Positions 19,657 to 32,836 of a stretch of DNA of 36,930 bases are shown piece after piece. How positions within the stretch are numbered: position 1 is the stretch's first letter; every line of letters starts with the position of its first letter. Position numbers and translations under genes: made by a program. The notes beneath the pieces are model-generated. The model was not told the origin of the DNA and ran no database searches. It worked only from the letters and a program-made list of their open reading frames with translations. The DNA is from an uncultured Lachnospiraceae bacterium (GTDB taxonomy: Bacteria > Bacillota > Clostridia > Lachnospirales > Lachnospiraceae): positions 1-36,930 of the forward strand of contig CACXCJ010000097.1 of the NCBI GenBank assembly GCA_902766175.1. The letters run 5' to 3'.

Positions 19657-19694
19657 AATTGTCAACCTGTTGTTCTCATATTCAGTTGACAATT
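19657..19694 (+). promoter_or_regulatory. BirA-type biotin operator
   Basis: A perfect 10-bp inverted repeat: AATTGTCAAC (19657-19666) and GTTGACAATT (19685-19694), separated by 18 bp. The form TTGTCAACC-N16-AGTTGACAA closely resembles the known BirA operator of Firmicutes and proteobacteria (TTGT(A/T)AACC-N14-16-GGTT(A/T)ACAA), with C in place of A/T. The right arm includes the -35 hexamer of the promoter that serves the MaoC-BioY-thiolase-ligase genes. Biotinoyl-AMP-BirA repression is inferred from motif and from bioY downstream; birA itself is not in the window. Confidence 0.75.
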
Positions 19695-19714
19695 GTCTCT
19701 TCTGCCGGTATACT
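19686..19714 (+). promoter_or_regulatory. Consensus sigma-A promoter of the BioY cluster
   Basis: Perfect -35 TTGACA (19686-19691), exactly 17 bp, then TATACT (19709-19714). Predicted transcription start near 19721. The -35 is inside the right arm of the BirA-type operator, so repressor binding would exclude RNA polymerase. It also shows that start codons before about 19721 in the first gene cannot be used. Confidence 0.8.
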
Positions 19715-19747
19715 CACATCTGTGCATTTGAATTTTCTACCGGAAGG

Positions 19748-20443
19748 TTGTGCTGCGCGACGGAAAAGGAAGCTCTGAGACAGAAAATTGACATCGGAAC
19801 GCTCGAAGCCGCGGAGCGCGCGTGCGCAGGAATTGGCGGCTTTGACGGCTGGATGATCGGAATCGTCCGGATCTGGTGGACAGGATGCGGGAAATGCAGC
19901 CCTCTCTGCTCTCCCGCCGGAGCGGACGGGGGACAGGGCACAGCCGCTCCACGCGTCCCCGTCCCTGCCTCCGCCCGCCTCGTGCGCCGCGGGCCGTCCG
20001 TCTCCGTGATCGAGACTGCGGCGGGAGACATCGCCATGCGGATTCTCCTCGTCCGGCCCGCAGAAGAGAGGGCGCCCTCCGCAGAGACCGCCGCGGAAGA
20101 CCTCTCCGGCCGGAAAGCGCTCTTTTCCATCTGCATCTCCCGCGGGGAGGCACAGGCGTTTCTGCATCGGGTAGGAGACGCAAACCCGCTGCACCGGGGA
20201 AACGGCGCGGTACTCCCCGGCTTTCTCATCCTGAACCGCGTTCTAGCACAGATGGCGGGACGCGGCGGCACTGCAGCAGACGGAGAGCCTTCGGGGGAGG
20301 CGTCAGAGAACGCGTATGAGTTTCGTTTTACCGCACCGCTGTTTCCGATGGAGCCCGCGGTGCTCTGCGCCGGGAGGAGCGGATTTTCCCTCACTGCCGG
20401 CGGCCGGGAAATCATGATTATAAGGAGGGTAAAGGTGTCATGA
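19748..20443 (+). CDS. MaoC-like hotdog-fold hydratase/dehydratase-type protein
   Basis: First gene of the predicted biotin-regulated cluster. The C-terminal ~110 aa look like a MaoC/(R)-hydratase domain: AFLHRVGDANPLHRGNGAVLPGFLILNRVL holds the Asp-x-Asn-Pro-x-His catalytic motif and the conserved Pro-Gly, followed by strands FRFTAPLFPMEPAVLCAG. These enzymes hydrate or dehydrate acyl-CoA/ACP thioesters. The N-terminal ~100 residues are Ala/Gly/Pro-rich and unrecognised. No ATG fits after the promoter; I use TTG 19748 (GGAAGG directly before) with low certainty, and a later non-ATG start is possible. The stop overlaps the bioY start (ATGA, 20440-20443), so the genes are translationally coupled. 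Confidence 0.6.
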   Translation: MCCATEKEALRQKIDIGTLEAAERACAGIGGFDGWMIGIVRIWWTGCGKCSPLCSPAGADGGQGTAAPRVPVPASARLVRRGPSVSVIETAAGDIAMRILLVRPAEERAPSAETAAEDLSGRKALFSICISRGEAQAFLHRVGDANPLHRGNGAVLPGFLILNRVLAQMAGRGGTAADGEPSGEASENAYEFRFTAPLFPMEPAVLCAGRSGFSLTAGGREIMIIRRVKVS

Positions 20444-21030
20444 ACAGCACAGCAGGCATGGAAGGCAAGGCAGGAAGCAGCAGAGCAGTGCGGAGCAGCG
20501 GACTCTGGAGCGCGGAGAGCCTCACGAAGATGGCGCTCATGGTGGCACTTCTCTCGGCGTCCTCTTACATTTCGATCCCGATCCCGTTCTCTCAGGCGCG
20601 GATCTCCGCCGGCACGCTCGTGGTGAACGTCATCGGTCTCCTTCTCGCCCCGGCGCAGACCGTCGTCGTGACGCTTGTATGGATTCTCCTGGGCCTCGTC
20701 GGCGTCCCGGTCTTCACAGGCGGCACCGCCGGACCCGCGAAGCTCTTCGGGCCGGTCGGCGGCTACTTTGTCGGATGGGTCGTGGCGGCCTGGCTCATCG
20801 CCGTCTTCTGCAGATTCGTGAAAAATGAGAAGCTGCAGCTCGTGTTCCTGATCGCAGCCGGCATCCCGGTGATCTACCTCTTCGGCGCCGTCTGGTACAA
20901 GTTCGTGACTGCCCAGCCGTGGGGGCCTGTGATCCTGCAGACCGTGGTTCCCTTCATTCCGCTCGATATTGTGAAGTGCATCGCAGCCATGGCGATCGCC
21001 CGGGCGCTCCGCGCGACGCACCTGTTCTGA
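20440..21030 (+). CDS. bioY: Biotin transporter BioY (ECF S component)
   Basis: The membrane substrate-binding subunit of biotin uptake, 196 aa with about six helices. After a ~25-residue polar N-terminus come KMALMVALLSASSYISIPIPFSQARISAGTLVVNVIGLLLAP and GLVGVPVFTGGTAGPAKLFGPVGGYFVGWV, the BioY hallmark segments, the latter with the GGxxGPxxxxGPxGGY-type biotin-site loop. AAGGAGGGTAAAG precedes ATG 20440. No ECF ATPase or T subunit is in the window, so it would use a shared module elsewhere or act alone. Biotin regulation is supported by the operator upstream of the preceding gene. Confidence 0.93.
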   Translation: MNSTAGMEGKAGSSRAVRSSGLWSAESLTKMALMVALLSASSYISIPIPFSQARISAGTLVVNVIGLLLAPAQTVVVTLVWILLGLVGVPVFTGGTAGPAKLFGPVGGYFVGWVVAAWLIAVFCRFVKNEKLQLVFLIAAGIPVIYLFGAVWYKFVTAQPWGPVILQTVVPFIPLDIVKCIAAMAIARALRATHLF

Positions 21031-21150
21031 GCTGCATCAGAGACGGCACCATGGCTTTCCCCGCTCCATTCCGCAGAGGACTGTCCCTGACCGGCTGCAT
21101 TCGCCGGAAGGGGACGGCTCTCTGCGGCTTCCGCTTTGAAAGGGGAATTT

Positions 21151-22383
21151 ATGCTCCAGCACGTATGGATTCTCGGCGGCTTCCGCACCTGCATCGGCGT
21201 GAAGGACAAGCAGTACCGCCGCGTCCCCGCTGAAACGCTCGGCGCGGCGGTCCTCAGGAAAACGGCAGGGACATACTGTCCCGATCCCTCCGCAGTCGAC
21301 CTGATCTGCGGGGGCAACGCCTGTGCCGGGGGAGGAAACATCACCCGCCTCGCGGCGCTTCTTGCCGGCCTTCCGGAGTCCGTCCCCTGCGTGACGTCCG
21401 ACCTGCAGTGTGCCTCGGCACTCGACTGCATCACGTCCGCTGCCGCGCGGATCGAGGCCGGTCTCGCGGATCTCGTCCTCGCGGGCGGTCTCGAGAGCGC
21501 CTCGACGCAGCCTCTCCGGGCGTGGAATCCGAACCACCCCGCCTGCCCGGAGGATCCGGACAGGCGGCGCTACATGACCGCCCGCTTCACTCCGGGCCCT
21601 TACAGCGAACAGGCGATGCTTCTCGGCGCGGAGAGGACCGCCGCCGCGGAACACATCTCGCGGAAGGAAGCCGACTTCTACGCCCTTCGGAGCCACCAGC
21701 TCGCGGCGGATGCCGCAGCACGCGGCATTCTCCGCGATCTTCTGGTGGACCCCCTCTCAGATCCCGCATATCCAGCCTGTTCTCTCTCCGGGGATGCGCC
21801 CTCCGGCCGCGGCACAGGGAGCGGCAGTGCCTGTCACCGCGCCGCCAGGGACGAGGGCATACGCCCGGGGATTTCGCAGCGCTTCCTGGACCGCCTGCCG
21901 TGTCTCCTGCCCGGCGGAGCCTTCCTGACGGCCGGAAATTCCTGCCTTATGAACGACGGCGCCGCGTTTCTCGTCCTCTGCTCGGACCGCTATGCCAGGG
22001 CGCACGGACTTCACCCGGAATTTCGGTTCCGCTGCGCTGCCGCCGCGGGATCTGATCCGGACATGAGCCCGCGGACCGCTGTTCTGGCCGCTCAAAAGCT
22101 CCTGCGCACCGCGGATCTCTCCCCGGACCGGATCTCCGCCTTTGAGGTGAACGAGGCGTTCGCCGTGATCGATGTTCTCTTTCAGCGCGCCTTCCCCGGG
22201 ACGCTGGACCGCTGCTCCATCTACGGCGGCGCGCTCGCCTACGGCCACCCGTACGGCGCGTCCGGCGGAATCCTGGCGCTTCATCTGATGCGCGCGCTGC
22301 AGGAGCGGGACGGCCGCTTCGGGCTCGCCTCGATCGCGGCGGCAGGCGGTATCGGCGAGGCGGTGCTGATCGAGCGGTGCTGA
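21151..22383 (+). CDS. Thiolase-family acyl-CoA acyltransferase homologue (YhfS-like), lacks second catalytic Cys
   Basis: A 410-aa thiolase-fold protein. GGGGA lies just before ATG 21151. The nucleophile region SDLQCASALD gives Cys87; NEAF (Asn334) and GGALAYGHPYGASGG (His366) are conserved. In ordinary thiolases the C-terminal block reads like LCIGGGMG, its Cys being the acid/base; here it reads IAAAGGIG, placing Ala396 there. Also present is a Cys/Gly/Ser-rich insert near 205-232. Reversible Claisen condensation or cleavage of acyl-CoA is the family reaction; with this substitution the chemistry may differ. It follows bioY by 120 bp. In Bacillus subtilis a thiolase (YhfS), ligase (YhfT) and BioY-like YhfU form an analogous biotin-regulated group. 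Confidence 0.85.
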   Translation: MLQHVWILGGFRTCIGVKDKQYRRVPAETLGAAVLRKTAGTYCPDPSAVDLICGGNACAGGGNITRLAALLAGLPESVPCVTSDLQCASALDCITSAAARIEAGLADLVLAGGLESASTQPLRAWNPNHPACPEDPDRRRYMTARFTPGPYSEQAMLLGAERTAAAEHISRKEADFYALRSHQLAADAAARGILRDLLVDPLSDPAYPACSLSGDAPSGRGTGSGSACHRAARDEGIRPGISQRFLDRLPCLLPGGAFLTAGNSCLMNDGAAFLVLCSDRYARAHGLHPEFRFRCAAAAGSDPDMSPRTAVLAAQKLLRTADLSPDRISAFEVNEAFAVIDVLFQRAFPGTLDRCSIYGGALAYGHPYGASGGILALHLMRALQERDGRFGLASIAAAGGIGEAVLIERC

Positions 22384-22547
22384 ACAGACTGTGTGGCGCG
22401 CGATCCGGCCCGCGCTGCGCACACTGCGCCGCCATACCCGCGCGGGGACTGCGCTGAGCACACTAAATCGGTGCGGCGCGCGGGGACTGCGCATACGGAA
22501 AGCCGCGTCCGCGCCGGGGAAATCAGAAGGAAAGGAGCAGCTGCCAG

Positions 22548-23912
22548 ATGGAATCCCGCGGAAAAATCACAGATTATCTCTCCGCCATCGAGCAGTTCCC
22601 GCCGGAGCGGGAGGCTCTTGTGACAGGCAGATGCACCGTCACGTTCGGCACCCTCACAGAGGAGGCGCGCCGGATCCGGGCAGAGGAGAACCTCGTCAGC
22701 GTCTCTCTGCCAGCCGGGTCCTCGTGTACCCCCGGCTCTTCCGCCGCAGGCGCAGCTGCTCCGCAGTATCTTCTCTCTCCTCTGAAGCCGGACGGATCTT
22801 TTTCGGAGCTCGCCCGGTTCATCGCGTACAGCGGCACAAGAAAGGTGCCGCTTTTTCTCCCGCGAGACATCTCCCTGTCTGAGGAATGCCTCTGCACGGC
22901 AGTTCCGGCCCGCACCGCCATGGCAGTCATGACCAGCGGGAGCTCCGGAAGACAGAAGCTCTACTTCCGGACCTTCGAGAGCTGGTACGATTTCTTCCCC
23001 GTGCAGAACAGAATTTTTTCCATGGGCGCGGGAACGCGCTGCTTCTTTGCGGGTAGCCCCGCCTTCACCGGCAGCCTGAATCTGGTTCTCGCGCAGCTCG
23101 CCTCCGGAGGCACCGTGATCTCCGAGGAGCTCTTTGACCCGCGTCTCTGGCTGAAGCGGATCGAGCGAGACAAGGCAGATGTGATTTACCTCATCCCTTC
23201 CAAGCTCCGCGCACTCACGGAGGTGGCGGGACACCCGGCAGGAAGCGCAGCGCACGCTGCCCCGCGGACTTTTCCCGGCGTCCGGTCCATCGTGAGCGGC
23301 TCCCAGAGCCTCGGCAGAAGAGACGCCGGGGCACTTCGGCGGATCTTCCCGCATGCAGCTCTGACTCTTTACTACGGCGCGAGCGAGCTGAGTTACGTGA
23401 CCTATCTCCGCGGGAGCGAGATGGGAGCGGACCCCTCCGTGATCGGCCGCCCGTTCCCCGGTATTTCCGTCCGTGCGGACAATGCGGGCCTTCTTCACGT
23501 CACGACCTCCTTCGGCGTGACGGGCCTTCCGAGGGATGCCGCAATCGGGGACCTGGGCCACCGGAATAAAAACGGACTCTGGTGCTTCGACGGCCGCGCG
23601 GACGATCTCTTGAATCTCCGCGGCCGGAAGGTCTCCGCCCAGAAGGTGCAGAACGCGCTCCTCTCTGTTCCCGGCGTGCGGGACGCAGCTGTCCTTCTTC
23701 TCCCCGCAGCGAAGGACGGTTCCGCCGAGCCCGTCCTCACGGCAGCTCTGGTGCTGGAAAAGGCCGACCCGCTGTCCCTCCGCCGCCTGCTCTCCGCCTC
23801 GCTTCTCCCCTTTGAAATCCCGAGGCGCTTTGTCCTTCTTCCAGAGCTCCCGAAAAACGAGAGCGGAAAGACGGACCGCCAGTCGTTAAAAAAGCAGCTG
23901 CAGACCATGTGA
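22548..23912 (+). CDS. AMP-binding acyl-CoA ligase (YhfT-like)
   Basis: Activates a carboxylic acid to acyl-AMP and probably acyl-CoA; 454 aa, shorter than classic ~520-aa ligases, with a reduced N-terminal domain. Motifs: P-loop AVMTSGSSGRQK (about 125-136), YYGASELSYVTY (about 280), the hinge Asp region GDLGHRNKNGLWCFDGRADDLLNLRG (about 330-355), and catalytic Lys in LPKNESGKTDRQSLKK. AAAGGAG precedes ATG 22548. It follows the thiolase after 164 bp, which contain a short direct repeat (GCGCGGGGACTGCGC twice) but no promoter I can support. Substrate unknown; a dicarboxylic or medium-chain acid is possible given the biotin context. Confidence 0.88.
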   Translation: MESRGKITDYLSAIEQFPPEREALVTGRCTVTFGTLTEEARRIRAEENLVSVSLPAGSSCTPGSSAAGAAAPQYLLSPLKPDGSFSELARFIAYSGTRKVPLFLPRDISLSEECLCTAVPARTAMAVMTSGSSGRQKLYFRTFESWYDFFPVQNRIFSMGAGTRCFFAGSPAFTGSLNLVLAQLASGGTVISEELFDPRLWLKRIERDKADVIYLIPSKLRALTEVAGHPAGSAAHAAPRTFPGVRSIVSGSQSLGRRDAGALRRIFPHAALTLYYGASELSYVTYLRGSEMGADPSVIGRPFPGISVRADNAGLLHVTTSFGVTGLPRDAAIGDLGHRNKNGLWCFDGRADDLLNLRGRKVSAQKVQNALLSVPGVRDAAVLLLPAAKDGSAEPVLTAALVLEKADPLSLRRLLSASLLPFEIPRRFVLLPELPKNESGKTDRQSLKKQLQTM

Positions 23913-25279: not shown

Positions 25280-26635
25280 TCAGCTGTTGTAAACTTCCTT
25301 ATTAAGTTCGCCCTCTTTTGCATTTACGATGACGTTCACCGCAGCGTCGCCAATCACGTTCAGCGGAAGCAGCGCCATCTCGACCGGGCGGTTAATCGCG
25401 AGCACCAGCGCATAGCCGAGGAGGAACGCATCGCTCGTCCAGCCCATGCCGGAGAGAACCGTGTAGATCATCGTCGTGCCGGCCACCGGAATCGCCGGGG
25501 TCCCTGCAGCGGCGCAGATGGAAAGCAGCGCCATCGTGACCATATTTGCCGGCGTGACATGGACGCCCGCCGCGGTCGCGATGAACGTGACCGCGAACAT
25601 ATGCATCATCGTCGTGCCGTTCATGTTGATCGTCATGCCCGTGGGAAGAACAAAGCTCGTGATCTCCCTGGAGCATCCGAGCTCGTTCAGGTTCGTCTCG
25701 GTGTTGATCGGCAGGGTCGCCGCAGAGGAATTCACAGAGAAGCCGAAGATACCGACCTTGAACATTTTTGTCAGGAACTTGAACGGGTTCAGACCTGTCG
25801 TCAGGAAAATGCCGAGCGGATAAAGCGTGCAGCAGGTGACAAGAAGCGTGATCATCGCGACAACGATGTAAGTCGCGGCCGGCGCCAGGTACTCCGCGCC
25901 GTAGATCGCGAAGGTTCTGACAATCAGGCAGAAGATTGCGAGCGGACCGATCCTGTTGATGAGGAAGCTCAGCCACATGTTCACGATCTCGCTGATGCTC
26001 ATGAAGACCTGCTTCAGCGGCTCCGCCTTCGGTCCGAGCTTCTGCATGCAGATGCCGATGATGATGGCGGTCACGACCACTGCGAGAATGCTGTTGTTCG
26101 TGCTCCAGGAGGCGAAGATGTTGTTCGTGAACGCATTGACGATTACCGCCAGCGGGTTGAACGCGTCGATCTCATTCGCCTTGAGCCCTGTGTCCTGAAT
26201 CGTGACATTGAAGCCGCCGGCATTCCGCACAAGCGCCGCGACAATGCAGGCAATCAGGGCGCCGCAGCAGTAGAACACGAAGAAGCCGATGAGTGTCTTC
26301 CACGCGATGCGTCCAAGCCTTGTGGTCTCCGTGATGCTGCAGAGCGCAAGGCTCAGGGATACGAGGACCAGCGGGACAATCGCCGCCTGCAGGCCCTTCA
26401 TGAAGATCTGGCCGATGATATAGAAGATGCCGACTGCACCTACGCCGTCCGCGCTCGTGATATCCTGAAACAACAGCTTATTGATGGTCTGCCACCCCGC
26501 CTCATTTCCGGAAGCAATCATGCCCTGCCGGATATTCATGAAAATGAGACCGACTGCGATGCCGCCGATGAGAGCGATCAGCATTTTCCGGATGATCGAC
26601 ATCCCTTTCTTCCTGACGCCTGCCTGTTCAGACAT
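25280..26635 (-). CDS. Dicarboxylate/amino acid:cation symporter (DAACS family)
   Basis: A 451-aa inner-membrane symporter of the GltP/SstT fold. The first hairpin carries SSAATLPINTE (serine-rich tip), TM7 carries TGMTINMNGTTMMHMF (the NMDGT position, here NMNGT), and the second hairpin region AAGTPAIPVAGTTM and RPVEMALLPLNVIGDAAVNVIV are all intact. The Asp-to-Asn change in NMDGT alters a residue used for Na+ binding in GltPh, seen also in some family members. Located between pxpA (73 bp) and the aminotransferase, it probably imports 5-oxoproline, glutamate or a related anion; which one is inference. Confidence 0.9.
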   Translation of the reverse strand: MSEQAGVRKKGMSIIRKMLIALIGGIAVGLIFMNIRQGMIASGNEAGWQTINKLLFQDITSADGVGAVGIFYIIGQIFMKGLQAAIVPLVLVSLSLALCSITETTRLGRIAWKTLIGFFVFYCCGALIACIVAALVRNAGGFNVTIQDTGLKANEIDAFNPLAVIVNAFTNNIFASWSTNNSILAVVVTAIIIGICMQKLGPKAEPLKQVFMSISEIVNMWLSFLINRIGPLAIFCLIVRTFAIYGAEYLAPAATYIVVAMITLLVTCCTLYPLGIFLTTGLNPFKFLTKMFKVGIFGFSVNSSAATLPINTETNLNELGCSREITSFVLPTGMTINMNGTTMMHMFAVTFIATAAGVHVTPANMVTMALLSICAAAGTPAIPVAGTTMIYTVLSGMGWTSDAFLLGYALVLAINRPVEMALLPLNVIGDAAVNVIVNAKEGELNKEVYNS

Positions 26636-26708
26636 ATTCCCTCTCCTCTTGTTGAATTGAAGTATCGTTTTCCTGTTCCCTGCCGCCTTCCCGCCGCAGG
26701 ATGCTTTT

Positions 26709-27467
26709 TTACTCGAATGCGCGGATCTCGACGCCCTCCTTCTTTAGCGCCTCCGAGATTCTCTTCGCGAACGCAATCGCCTTCGGCCCGTCTCCGTGCA
26801 CGCACAGCGTGTCTCCCCTGATGTCAAGATCCTTTCCGCTATAGGACCTGACCTTCCCCTCCTTCACCATCCGGAGAACCCGCCTGATCGCCTCGTCCTC
26901 GTCCGTGACCATCGCTCCCTCGAGTTTCCGGGACCGCAGAGAGAGATCGTCCTCGTACGCCCGGTCCGCAAAGATCTCGCACGCCGAGCGGAGTCCGATC
27001 TTCTCCGCCTCTTCCCCGAGCACCGCTCCCGCACAGTAGTAGATGATGATCTCCGGATCCATCTCATACACCGCCTCGCAGACCGCTCTCGCGAGGCCCC
27101 GGTCGTCCTGGCACATGTTTCCCATGGCTCCGTGCGGCGCCACGTGGTGAATCTTCAGTCCGTACGCCGCCGTGAATGCGCTGAGTGCCCCCACCTGGTA
27201 CTTCACGTAGTTCTTCGCCTCCGCGAACGAGAGCTTCATCTGCCGTCTCCCGAATCCCATGAGGTCCGGATATCCCGGATGCGCGCCGACCTTTACGCCG
27301 AGCTCTGCCGCCGTCTTCACGACGCGGTCCATCACGACCGGATCTCCCGCGTGCCACCCGCACGCCACATTGCAAGCGGTGATGTACTTCAGGATCTCCT
27401 CGTCGTTTCCGAGCTTATACGCTCCGAAGCTCTCCCCGATGTCACTGTTGAAATCGATTGCGTACAT
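26709..27467 (-). CDS. pxpA: 5-oxoprolinase subunit PxpA (LamB/YcsF)
   Basis: A component of the three-subunit ATP-dependent enzyme that opens 5-oxoproline (pyroglutamate) to glutamate. 252 aa, standard size. Signatures: DFNSDIGESFGAYKLGND at the N-terminus, ACNVACGWHAGDPVVM, GVKVGAHPGYPDLMGFGRR, and EIFADRAYEDDLSLRSR. It starts one base after pxpC ends, suggesting a stable coupled operon. The B-C-A order differs from the common A-B-C order. Confidence 0.95.
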   Translation of the reverse strand: MYAIDFNSDIGESFGAYKLGNDEEILKYITACNVACGWHAGDPVVMDRVVKTAAELGVKVGAHPGYPDLMGFGRRQMKLSFAEAKNYVKYQVGALSAFTAAYGLKIHHVAPHGAMGNMCQDDRGLARAVCEAVYEMDPEIIIYYCAGAVLGEEAEKIGLRSACEIFADRAYEDDLSLRSRKLEGAMVTDEDEAIRRVLRMVKEGKVRSYSGKDLDIRGDTLCVHGDGPKAIAFAKRISEALKKEGVEIRAFE

Positions 27468-27468
27468 T

Positions 27469-28416
27469 TCAGCCCACCAGCCTTTCCTCCAGTTGATTGA
27501 GTGCCTCCAGTTCCTTTATGCAGAGCATCTGTGCGAGCTCCACGCCGACCCGCACAAAACGCACCTTCATTCCGGGACGCGCCTGCGCAAGCTTCGGCAG
27601 GTCTGCCGAGATCACCGTCGCGATCTTCGTGTACCCGCCGACCGTCTGCCGGTCCGCCATCATCACAATCGGCTGCCCGTCCGTCGGCACCTGCACTGAC
27701 CCGAACGCGATTCCGTCGCTGATGATGTTTCCGTCCCTCAGGTGTTTCAGCGGCTCCTCTCTTTTCAGGCGGATTCCCTGCCGGTCCGACTGGTTCGTGA
27801 TGACCGCGCTGTACCAGAAGAACCGGTTCAGCTCCTCCCTTGAAAACGCGCTGTCCTGCGGCCCCGGGATGGCCCGCACACACACCTCGTCCTTCGGGTA
27901 CACCGGCGCGCTGAGCTTTCTCTCCGCAAAGTGCGGGAGCGCGGTCCGCGGTGCTTTGAGACCGATCCGGTCCCCCTTCCTCAGGATTCTTCCATCGACC
28001 CCGCCGAGTCCCTTCTGCGGAAGCGTCGACTGCGATCCCATGACGAGCGGAACGTCGAGCCCGCCGGCAAACGCGATGTAGGCGCGCATCCCGGTCAGAG
28101 CACTCCTGAGCTTCAGGACATCCCCGCGCTCCGCCCTGACAGCGGCATACATCGGAATCTCCGCCCCGTTCAGCATCGGCCGCATATCTGCGCCGCAGAT
28201 GGCGAAGATCTCCGCCTCCTCAAAGCGGATCTCCGGCCCGGTGAAGGTCACCTCCAGCGCGCCCTCCGTCCTCCTGTTCCCCGCGAGAATGTTCGCGAGA
28301 TGAAAGGAAAGCGTGTCCATGGGGCCGGAGGGCGAGACGCCGTACTGCTGGTACCCGAGCCTTCCCTCGTCCTGTACCGTGGTAAACATGCCCGGTGACT
28401 GAATGAAAACTGCCAT
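27469..28416 (-). CDS. pxpC: 5-oxoprolinase subunit PxpC (KipA, carboxyltransferase-like)
   Basis: A 315-aa protein of the urea amidolyase/KipA carboxyltransferase-fold family, the partner of PxpB in 5-oxoproline hydrolysis. It opens with FIQSPGMFTTVQDEGRLGYQQYGVSPSGPMD, the family signature, and has YAVIRAERGDVLKL-type core strands, MMADRQTVGGYTKIATV near the C-terminus and a full-length fold. It lies 4 bp after pxpB and 1 bp before pxpA. No biotin carboxylase genes lie beside it, which supports Pxp over an acetyl-CoA carboxylase-like role. Confidence 0.93.
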   Translation of the reverse strand: MAVFIQSPGMFTTVQDEGRLGYQQYGVSPSGPMDTLSFHLANILAGNRRTEGALEVTFTGPEIRFEEAEIFAICGADMRPMLNGAEIPMYAAVRAERGDVLKLRSALTGMRAYIAFAGGLDVPLVMGSQSTLPQKGLGGVDGRILRKGDRIGLKAPRTALPHFAERKLSAPVYPKDEVCVRAIPGPQDSAFSREELNRFFWYSAVITNQSDRQGIRLKREEPLKHLRDGNIISDGIAFGSVQVPTDGQPIVMMADRQTVGGYTKIATVISADLPKLAQARPGMKVRFVRVGVELAQMLCIKELEALNQLEERLVG

Positions 28417-28420
28417 ACCT

Positions 28421-29146
28421 TCAACCTTCCCTGTGCACGGTCACCTGATACGTGCCGTCTTCCACCTGGCTGCGTATTCTGTCATACTCATTTCGATCCA
28501 CCGGGATGTAGCGCACCCACTCCCCGGCGCGCACAAGAAACGGATCCTCTCTGTGGTAATCGCAGATGTCAAGCGGCGTCATTCCGATGATGTTCCACCC
28601 GCACGGCTGATCGAACGGAATCAGATCCGAGAGATTCAGCTGCACCACGACGGACCTTCCGGGAATCCTGACGCGGGCGGTCTCCCGGCGCTTGAAGTGA
28701 AACGGCTCCTCAAAGCGCGCGGAGTACGGATGCCCCGGGGCGAATCCCAGCATGAACACGTAGTAGTCATGGCTGGAGTGCATCCGGATGATCTCGTCCG
28801 TGCTCGTGTGCTCCAGCTCCGCACAGACCTCGAGATCCGGTCCCAGATCTCCTCCGTAGCAGATCGGCACTTCCTTGACGATCCTCCCGCCGCTCTGCTG
28901 CTCCGCGCGGAGATCCGCGCAGCGCTCCGCAATCCGCTTTCTGAGCTCCGCAAAGCGGATCACCTCCGGGCGATAGTGGATCATCAGGGCTGCGTAGGTC
29001 GGAACCATCTCCGTGATGCCCTCGATCGGATGCTCCGTGAGCTCCCTTCGGAGCGCCAGGACACGTCCGTTCACCTCGAGACTGATCTCGCTCCCGAGCT
29101 GAACCGAGACGGCACGGTCTCCCGCAGCCAGAATTTCAGCTTCCAT
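28421..29146 (-). CDS. pxpB: 5-oxoprolinase subunit PxpB (KipI-like)
   Basis: A 241-aa PxpB/KipI protein, forming a heterodimer with PxpC. Features: GDRAVSVQLGSEIS at the N-terminus, VPICYGGDLGPDLEVCAELE, and YVFMLGFAPGHPYSARF, the usual Gly-Phe-x-Pro-Gly motif, then PCGWNIIGMTP. I choose ATG 29146: a homologous domain starts at once and GGAGG lies 13 nt upstream. A TTG at 29245 would add 33 residues including a 14-bp tandem repeat (GTTCCTGCTGCTCT twice on the plus strand, about 29191-29218), unlike family members. First gene of the operon. Confidence 0.9.
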   Translation of the reverse strand: MEAEILAAGDRAVSVQLGSEISLEVNGRVLALRRELTEHPIEGITEMVPTYAALMIHYRPEVIRFAELRKRIAERCADLRAEQQSGGRIVKEVPICYGGDLGPDLEVCAELEHTSTDEIIRMHSSHDYYVFMLGFAPGHPYSARFEEPFHFKRRETARVRIPGRSVVVQLNLSDLIPFDQPCGWNIIGMTPLDICDYHREDPFLVRAGEWVRYIPVDRNEYDRIRSQVEDGTYQVTVHREG

Positions 29147-29255
29147 TCCGAACGGCTTTCCTCCTTTTCTGCTTTGCTCTGCGCTGCCCGGTTCCTGCTG
29201 CTCTGTTCCTGCTGCTCTGTTCCGAACAGCCAGTGCTTTTTCCAAAGTCCCGCGC

Positions 29256-31908: not shown

Positions 31909-32010
31909 GAAACAGGCGCAGTACAGAAACAGGAGCAGTACAGAAACAGGCGCAGTACAGAAACAGGAGCAGTACAGAAACAGGCGCAGTACAGAAACAG
32001 GAGCAGTACA
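31909..32010 (+). repeat. Six 17-bp tandem repeats ending at the truA start
   Basis: The unit GAAACAGGCGCAGTACA is repeated six times without gaps. Odd copies have GGCG and even copies GGAG at the variable site, so the true period is 34 bp (three copies). The even copies contain AGGAG. The last copy ends one base before the ATG of truA, so its AGGAG is the gene's ribosome-binding site. No stop codon occurs in the truA frame through the array. Copy-number change by slippage would keep the last ribosome site in place but alter the 5' leader. Confidence 0.9.
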
Positions 32011-32011
32011 G

Positions 32012-32836
32012 ATGGAACGAAACTTCAGACTCATCGTCGCGTACGACGGCACGCGCTACTTCGGCTGGGAGCATCAGAAGACGGAAAAGAATACGATTCA
32101 GGGGAAGCTGGAAAGTGTCCTCGCGCGGATGCTTCTCTCGGGCGGAAGGGATCAGATCCCGGATCCGCTGGATCCTGAAAAGTGCATCTCTCCCTCGGAT
32201 CTGCCGGAAAAATTTCTGCCGGAAGTCACTGTGACTGGCGCCGGACGGACGGATGCCGGCGTTCACGCGCGCGCGCAGACAGCGAACGTGCACCTCGACA
32301 CACCGCTCTCAGAAGAGGAAATCCGCGCGTACTTAAACCGCTACCTCCCGGAGGACATCGGGGTCAGCGAGGTAAAGCAGGTCTCCGACCGCTTCCACGC
32401 GCGCTTTTCGGCAACCGGGAAGACCTACCGCTACACCTTTTACACCGGCCCGCAGAAGCCGGTCTTCGAGCGCCGGTACGTCACGGTGCTGGACCGGACC
32501 CCGGACCTCACGCGGATGCGCGAGGCCGCGGCGCTCCTGACCGGGACGCATGACTTCAAGAGCTTCTGCGGCAACCCGAAGATGAAAAAGTCCACGATCC
32601 GCACTGTGGATTCCATCGAAATCCTGCGTAACGGGCCGTACCTGCGCCTCAACTTTCACGGCGACGGCTTTCTCCAGCACATGGTGCGGATTCTCTCGGG
32701 AACCCTCCTCGAGGCCGGGTACGGAAAGCGGGCGCCGGAGGACATGACCGCAGTGCTCGCCGCAAGGAGCCGCTCCGCGGCGGGATTCACCGCGCCCGCG
32801 CAGGGCCTCTGCCTCATGAAGGTGGACTACCAGTGA
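32012..32836 (+). CDS. truA: tRNA pseudouridine(38-40) synthase TruA
   Basis: Converts uridines 38-40 in the tRNA anticodon arm to pseudouridine. 274 aa from ATG 32012; the domain starts immediately (NFRLIVAYDGTRYFGWEHQ). The catalytic Asp is Asp81 in TGAGRTDAGVHARAQ, about 20 residues later than usual because of an insertion at about 44-68 (GGRDQIPDPLDPEKCISPSD). The C-terminal motifs FHARFSATGKTYRY, GTHDFKSFC and GDGFLQHMVRILSGTLLEAG are intact. An upstream GTG at 31886 would read through the tandem repeats; homology gives no support for it. It converges on the membrane-protein gene with a 15-bp gap. Confidence 0.93.
   Translation: MERNFRLIVAYDGTRYFGWEHQKTEKNTIQGKLESVLARMLLSGGRDQIPDPLDPEKCISPSDLPEKFLPEVTVTGAGRTDAGVHARAQTANVHLDTPLSEEEIRAYLNRYLPEDIGVSEVKQVSDRFHARFSATGKTYRYTFYTGPQKPVFERRYVTVLDRTPDLTRMREAAALLTGTHDFKSFCGNPKMKKSTIRTVDSIEILRNGPYLRLNFHGDGFLQHMVRILSGTLLEAGYGKRAPEDMTAVLAARSRSAAGFTAPAQGLCLMKVDYQ

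What the first reader, a model, noticed from the sequence alone, without database searches (positions are those of the whole stretch)
19657..23912. Biotin-regulated acyl-CoA module: MaoC-like hydratase, BioY, thiolase homologue and acyl-CoA ligase
Seen: a BirA-type operator and consensus promoter precede four same-strand genes, the first two overlapping (ATGA). Known: B. subtilis yhfS (thiolase), yhfT (ligase) and yhfU (BioY-type) form a biotin-regulated group whose enzymes were proposed to make a biotin precursor. Inferred: adding a MaoC-like hydratase gives activation, condensation/cleavage and hydration steps on acyl-CoA, i.e. a possible route to or from pimeloyl-CoA, coupled to biotin uptake. 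No bioF/A/D/B gene is in the window. The complete four-part set appears little described.
Basis: partly seen in the sequence, partly recalled or inferred. Interest (0 to 1): 0.75.

Follow-up and report, generated by a model that had tools for sequence, protein, structure and literature searches.

The report
Biotin-repressed acyl-CoA and biotin-uptake operon
A gut-type bacterium that seems unable to make the vitamin biotin carries an operon, probably switched off by biotin, that pairs the biotin importer with three enzymes of acyl-chain chemistry, one of which lacks a standard catalytic residue; this suggests salvage of biotin-like molecules rather than synthesis of a biotin precursor.

Summary
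A BirA-type operator overlaps the -35 box of an 11/12 promoter before orf1 (MaoC-like), bioY, a thiolase homologue and a YhfT-related ligase. It is the genome's only exact match to the pattern, and the genome has a repressor-type BirA. The set recurs: of 80 named loci found through the ligase, 34 have all four genes in this order and 68 have bioY within 2.1 kb. Operator-like sites (at most 1 mismatch) precede 39 of 68 such operons, against 1 of 1115 control segments.

The pimeloyl-CoA reading is not supported here: bioB, bioD and bioF were not found in the window's genome. Of 52 carriers tested for all three, 19 have none and 15 bioB only. Three carriers with bioF that I checked have bioW already.

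The "thiolase" keeps its nucleophilic Cys, Asn and His, but the second catalytic Cys is missing in 77 of 77 sequences. Orf1 resembles double-hotdog hydratases, with the catalytic Asp and His kept.

Best reading: a biotin-starvation operon of an auxotroph that imports biotin-like molecules and extends an acyl side chain by two carbons. The substrate is inferred. It is a new variant of the BirA-regulated YhfS/YhfT/BioY group.

The parts
19659..19692 (+). BirA-type operator TTGTCAACC-N16-AGTTGACAA
   Evidence: operator-like sites upstream of relatives
19686..19714 (+). sigma-70-type promoter TTGACA-17-TATACT; its -35 box lies inside the operator
19775..20443 (+). orf1, MaoC-like hydratase/dehydratase; start codon uncertain (19775 is one of four candidates)
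20440..21030 (+). bioY, substrate-binding biotin transporter; overlaps orf1 by ATGA
   Evidence: PF02632, 112.5 bits against a cut-off of 25; only BioY match in the genome
21151..22383 (+). thiolase-fold enzyme without the second catalytic Cys (TTG start 21136 also possible)
22548..23912 (+). acyl-CoA ligase, distantly related to YhfT (PRK07638)

Best explanation
This is a biotin-starvation operon of a biotin auxotroph. When biotin is scarce, BirA leaves the operator and the promoter fires. BioY imports biotin and probably biotin-like molecules. The ligase turns an imported acid into its CoA ester. The thiolase-fold enzyme, which keeps the acyl-accepting Cys and the Asn/His oxyanion hole but lacks the proton-abstracting Cys, adds two carbons by decarboxylative condensation, as a beta-ketoacyl synthase does. 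After reduction by a general ketoreductase, orf1 dehydrates the 3-hydroxyacyl thioester, and an enoyl reductase finishes the cycle. The most likely substrate is a biotin vitamer with a shortened side chain, such as bisnorbiotin, which would be rebuilt to biotin. Shown by computation: gene set, operator sequence, conservation, bio genes not found, active-site residues, predicted fold. Inferred: repression itself, direction, decarboxylative chemistry, substrate.
For: Own genome: no bioB, bioD or bioF over the cut-off, two biotinyl/lipoyl-type domains, a repressor-type BirA and one BioY, in this operon. Its only exact operator is here; the genus-mate G072, in which neither orf1 nor the ligase was found, has its only one between bioB and bioY. 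bioY lies within 2.1 kb of the thiolase or ligase in 68 of 80 loci. bioB is inside the operon in six loci, L065, L066, L069, L082, L090, L108, and their genomes have neither bioD nor bioF over the cut-off. FabV enoyl reductase follows the ligase in five of 80 loci (three confirmed), which suits synthesis. Second Cys absent in 77 of 77; nucleophile, Asn and His kept in 77 of 77. Met288, a pocket residue of classical thiolases, is Ser in 72 and Pro in 5 of 77. Orf1 resembles hydratase-2 enzymes.
Against: No call names the substrate. FabV is beside only 5 of 80 modules, and among 40 of 46 neighbour clusters of three or more loci that I looked at by eye there is no ketoreductase. Orf1 was not found in 24 of 80 loci, among them four bioB-thiolase-ligase loci. 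Eight of 52 carriers have bioB, bioD and bioF, so the function must also make sense in probable prototrophs. Carriers do not lack bioB more often than the family: 34 of 54 have it, against 95 of 299. Nineteen of 68 operons have no operator-like site, and the exact pattern is absent from 7 of 17 genomes searched. G097 has the four genes but gave no BirA match, no exact operator, and Gly for the thiolase Asn. A malonyl donor itself needs biotin.
Confidence: 0.38

Rival explanations
1. Biotin-sparing lipid metabolism. When acetyl-CoA carboxylase is short of biotin, the ligase activates scavenged fatty acids and the thiolase-like enzyme and orf1 remodel or extend them, lowering the need for biotin.
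For: Works in auxotrophs and prototrophs alike. The ligase and FabV belong to fatty-acid families. S. [quoted passage not shown]
Against: To bypass malonyl-CoA the enzyme must condense acetyl-CoA, which normally needs the Cys that is missing in 77 of 77. The linkage is to bioY and sometimes bioB; among the neighbour clusters that I looked at, fabV is the only fatty-acid synthesis gene recognised by eye.
Confidence: 0.27
2. Route to pimelate or pimeloyl-CoA for biotin synthesis.
For: The known yhfS/yhfT group shares BirA control (PMC6391492, passages). Eight of 52 carriers have bioB, bioD and bioF.
Against: No bioB, bioD or bioF over the cut-off in the window's genome; 19 of 52 carriers have none of them. 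The three checked carriers with bioF (L252, L257, L259; in L257 bioF is about one bit below its cut-off) have bioW. Cys378 is missing.
Confidence: 0.08
3. Trapping: the ligase makes biotinyl-CoA from imported biotin to keep it in the cell, and the other two enzymes transfer or release it.
For: Frequent pairing of bioY and ligase; the thiolase keeps the acyl-accepting Cys that a transacylase needs.
Against: A hydratase has no clear role in this, yet its Asp and His are kept in 57 of 57.
Confidence: 0.1
4. Degradation of a side chain: beta-oxidation of an imported acid by hydration and thiolysis.
For: Orf1 resembles hydratases.
Against: No acyl-CoA dehydrogenase was recognised among the neighbour clusters that I looked at; FabV works in the synthetic direction (recalled); the residue that should protonate the leaving enolate is missing.
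Confidence: 0.1

Closest known systems
BirA-regulated yhfS-yhfT and bioY of S. aureus and B. subtilis
   Same: Thiolase homologue, acyl-CoA ligase and bioY under BirA control; binding and biotin-dependent repression are reported for S. aureus BirA (PMC6391492, passages)
   Different: Orf1 is added. In S. aureus bioY is a separate unit (passages). The window proteins score far below the cut-offs of PRK06690 and PRK07638, models that I equate with YhfS and YhfT from recall
BioZ (KAS III type 3-oxopimeloyl synthase; recalled, no call)
   Same: A condensing enzyme of biotin metabolism that adds two carbons to an acyl thioester
   Different: Different branch of the superfamily (thiolase, not KAS III); bioB, bioD and bioF not found here
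Hydratase 2 / HtdX double-hotdog enzymes
   Same: Fold and Asp-x-Asn-x-x-His motif
   Different: 11-18% identity and TM about 0.5 in the 32 best fold hits; no Pfam match for the window protein
Biotin auxotroph classes A and A1 (BirA only; BioB only) of gut bacteria, PMC6593275
   Same: Biotin gene states like those of 34 of 52 carriers, as far as bioB, bioD and bioF tell; the paper suggests wider BioY specificity for vitamers (passages)
   Different: The passages I saw do not mention this enzyme set

Membership tests
BirA regulon | Operator at the promoter | tested here: met
BirA regulon | Repressor-type BirA with HTH in the genome | tested here: met
   HTH_11 54.6 bits, BPL domain 72.2 bits
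BirA regulon | Repression by biotin | not testable with these tools
   needs RNA measurement
BioY | PF02632 above cut-off | tested here: met
   112.5 bits, cut-off 25
Thiolase (acetyl-CoA C-acyltransferase) | Family model above cut-off | tested here: met
   TIGR01930 306.7 bits, cut-off 240.55
Thiolase (acetyl-CoA C-acyltransferase) | Second catalytic Cys (CXG motif; role from PMC3406046 passages) | tested here: not met
   Ala 71, Pro 4, Ser 2 of 77; Ala in the window; a paralogue in L077 has it
YhfS (PRK06690; equation recalled) | Equivalog cut-off | tested here: not met
   210.3 bits, cut-off 498
YhfT (PRK07638; equation recalled) | Equivalog cut-off | tested here: not met
   117.3 bits, cut-off 518, though the best of all NCBIfam models
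MaoC-like hydratase | PF01575 above cut-off | tested here: not met
   no match for the window; 3 of 4 relatives at 12.9-17.8 bits, cut-off 27
MaoC-like hydratase | Catalytic Asp and His | tested here: met
   57 of 57; found with a profile that holds the motif
MaoC-like hydratase | Hotdog fold of hydratase 2 | tested here: met
   pLDDT 85.9; HtdX E 4.3e-8, TM 0.52 and 0.48, rmsd 6.5; weaker hits include thioesterases
Biotin synthesis pathway | bioF, bioD, bioB in the genome | tested here: not met
   none over the cut-off in G000, 95% complete
Vitamer side-chain salvage | Activity on shortened biotin | not testable with these tools
   biochemistry needed

The most novel reading that the evidence does not exclude
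Bacteria have a biotin side-chain repair pathway. Bisnorbiotin or similar, lost by hosts and other microbes, is imported by BioY, activated, extended by two carbons by a thiolase-fold enzyme that has become a decarboxylative condensing enzyme, dehydrated by a dedicated double-hotdog enzyme and reduced to biotin. In lineages with bioB in the operon, dethio forms would be mended as well.
Probability: 0.22. Interest if true: 0.85.

Novelty: new variant of a known kind. Interest (0 to 1): 0.56.

Why it matters
In the papers I saw, yhfS and yhfT are biotin-regulated genes with only putative roles. Their relatives here sit, in a third or more of the genomes tested, where bioB, bioD and bioF were not found, and include a thiolase without its second catalytic Cys. 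Both facts narrow the possible functions and make them testable. If salvage of altered biotin is right, it adds a vitamer to the exchange of vitamins among gut microbes and gives a function to a catalytic change within a large enzyme family.

Tried and rejected
Pimeloyl-CoA reading: rejected for this genome because bioB, bioD and bioF were not found. BioF-like hits below the cut-off in G700, G406 and G378 were not counted. Of those five hits I checked three by family model: that of G700 scores above the glycine C-acetyltransferase cut-off; one each of G406 and G378 stay below every listed cut-off.

An association of the module with loss of bioB was sought and not found: 34 of 54 carriers have bioB, and 95 of 299 genomes of the family; among the five carriers of the family sample one has it.

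An Ltp2-type aldolase reading of the thiolase (recalled) was dropped because Cys, Asn and His are all kept.

Orf1 alone was followed at class level: 7 of 391 genomes besides the own one match. Two have the whole set (L052, L053), one has three genes before the contig ends (L051), and four (L049, L050, L054, L055) show no module beside the match; orf1-like or plain MaoC-like proteins therefore also occur outside it.

B. subtilis YhfS itself could not be read; only a more distant relative (L246) was seen, which also lacks the Cys. Searches for bisnorbiotin salvage by bacteria gave listings only; nothing relevant seen in titles or abstract beginnings.

ECF type is confirmed for L064 and by eye likely in L061 and L062.

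Full report
What is there. The window holds a BirA-type operator (19659-19692) whose right half overlaps the -35 box of a strong promoter (19686-19714), followed by orf1, bioY, a thiolase homologue and an acyl-CoA ligase on the same strand. Orf1 and bioY overlap by ATGA. The operator pattern matches the window's genome once, here; of 17 genomes searched 10 have it, and the reversed control pattern matches 3 of 17, not the own one. The own genome has one BioY match, one BirA with a DNA-binding domain and two biotinyl/lipoyl-type domains, so it probably needs biotin and can sense it.

The family of the window.

Conservation. A ligase search of 299 family genomes gave five with more than 180 bits, the own one included; the other 53 that matched at all have at most 60. 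In G222 and G097 the order is as in the window; in G192 bioY is divergent; in G029 orf1-thiolase and bioY/ligase lie on two contigs. A profile of ligases then found 492 relatives in named genomes, of which the tool kept the best 80. These 80 were chosen by ligase similarity, so the counts that follow describe that set. In one search, 34 of 80 have orf1-bioY-thiolase-ligase (one of them near a contig end), 68 have bioY, 56 orf1 and 76 the thiolase. In the 68, bioY is within 2.1 kb of the thiolase or ligase. Of the 12 without bioY, 10 have their first detected module gene within 500 bases of the stretch's start; L121 and L129 have room and still lack it. By record title the 80 include Lachnospiraceae, Phascolarctobacterium, Selenomonas, Dialister and a spirochaete MAG. 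A thiolase profile over 398 genomes of the phylum matched 12 at E up to 1e-90, the own one included; eight of the other 11 have bioY beside it in the 4-kb stretches read.

Operators. Sixty-eight of 80 loci have at least 500 bases before the first gene. Within that stretch 20 have an exact site, 39 a site with at most one mismatch and 49 with at most two; among 1115 random segments of the same loci the numbers are 0, 1 and 24. Nineteen of 68 have no site at this level, and G097 has no exact operator and no BirA match, so control by BirA is not shown for all.

Orf1. It has no family match by itself, but it matches its relatives (E 5.8e-18 in the G222 stretch). A profile of ten members finds human HTD2 (E 1.1e-6) and, weakly, an (R)-specific enoyl-CoA hydratase (E 0.03) among solved structures. 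The predicted structure (pLDDT 85.9) best matches hydratases such as HtdX, MFE-2 hydratase 2 and itaconyl-CoA hydratase, at TM about 0.5 with large rmsd; thioesterases follow lower down. Asp and His of the motif are kept in 57 of 57 and Asn in 56 of 57, in sequences that a profile holding the motif had found. In hydratase 2 the double hotdog is known to make room for bulky substrates (recalled).

The thiolase. It passes the general thiolase model and folds as a thiolase. According to PMC3406046 (passages), the nucleophile is Cys89, Asn316 and His348 form the oxyanion hole, and Cys378 is the base that takes the proton; PMC4595758 (abstract and passages) names both Cys as catalytic. In 77 module sequences (76 loci and the window) Cys89, Asn316 and His348 are invariant, while the position of Cys378 is Ala in 71, Pro in 4 and Ser in 2. 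G097, which is not among the 77, has Gly in place of the Asn. The phylum sample agrees on the missing Cys, 12 of 12, the own one included; one paralogue in L077, the single control, keeps CIGGG. Met288 is Ser in 72 and Pro in 5 of 77, while Met157 is kept in 77 (positions read off the alignment). Cys with Asn/His but no base is what a decarboxylating condensing enzyme needs; that this one works so is inference.

Biotin genes. bioB was sought in 56 genomes, bioD and bioF in 55 each. Leaving out the genus-mate G072 and, for bioB, one duplicate (G689 = G029), bioB is over the cut-off in 34 of 54 carriers, bioD in 18 of 54 and bioF in 8 of 54. For the 52 carriers present in all three searches: 19 have none, 15 bioB only, 9 bioB and bioD, 8 all three, 1 bioD only. 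The last, G717, has a bioF hit just below the cut-off, as has G720. Many of these genomes are drafts or MAGs, so single absences are weak. The window's genome has none of the three. In the three genomes with bioF that I checked by family model (L252 in G691, L257 in G720, L259 in G714) bioW is present, fused to bioF or directly before it; the others were not tested. A pimelate-activating role for the module's ligase would be redundant there. The genus-mate G072 gave no match to orf1 or the ligase, but has bioB and bioY with the operator between.

Neighbours. In six loci bioB lies inside the operon (two confirmed by model), four of them without orf1. FabV follows the ligase in L065, L066, L086, L089 and L106 and was found in no other of the 80 loci (L065, L089 and L106 confirmed by model). 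I looked by eye at 40 of the 46 neighbour clusters that span three or more loci; no ketoreductase or acyl-CoA dehydrogenase was recognised.

Reading. Frequent company of bioY, frequent BirA-type sites and presence in likely auxotrophs say biotin acquisition. The enzymes say two-carbon chain building on an acyl thioester. The simplest union is repair of a shortened biotin side chain. Bisnorbiotin makes up 13-23% of the total biotin in human 24-h urine (PMC9106636, passages), so such molecules exist in hosts. Lipid sparing is the strongest rival, weakened by the missing Cys.

Print. S. [quoted passage not shown] PMC11089781 states BirA repression of bioY, yhfS and yhfT for B. subtilis and S. aureus (passage). 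PMC6593275 classifies gut biotin auxotrophs and proposes wider BioY specificity (passages). In the held library no paper has both 'bioY' and 'MaoC'; subscription journals are mostly not covered.

Noticed in passing
L174 6139-10127 (Dialister succinatiphilus, by way of L125): Three bioB genes in a row on one strand.
   Followed up: no
L252 4394-6289 (-), and similar long frames in L253-L256: BioW fused to BioF in one protein; confirmed by family models for L252 only.
   Followed up: partly
L065, L066, L086, L089, L106, after the ligase: FabV-type enoyl reductase downstream of the module; three of five confirmed by model.
   Followed up: partly
L064 4564-6438: Two ECF transporter ATPases fused in one 624-aa protein beside the module; similar long frames in L061 and L062.
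   Followed up: partly
L109, L110, L113, L115, L118, L130, about 2.7 kb from the module: A gene that looks by eye like methylmalonyl-CoA mutase.
   Followed up: no
window 31909-32012: Perfect tandem repeat, 34-base unit, 3.1 copies, inside the frame that runs into a probable tRNA pseudouridine synthase (by eye).
   Followed up: no
window 25280-29245 (-): Genes that look by eye like 5-oxoprolinase subunits (pxpA, pxpB, pxpC) beside a sodium:dicarboxylate-type symporter.
   Followed up: no
L049, L050: Orf1-like proteins with the GDxNxxH motif and no module nearby.
   Followed up: no
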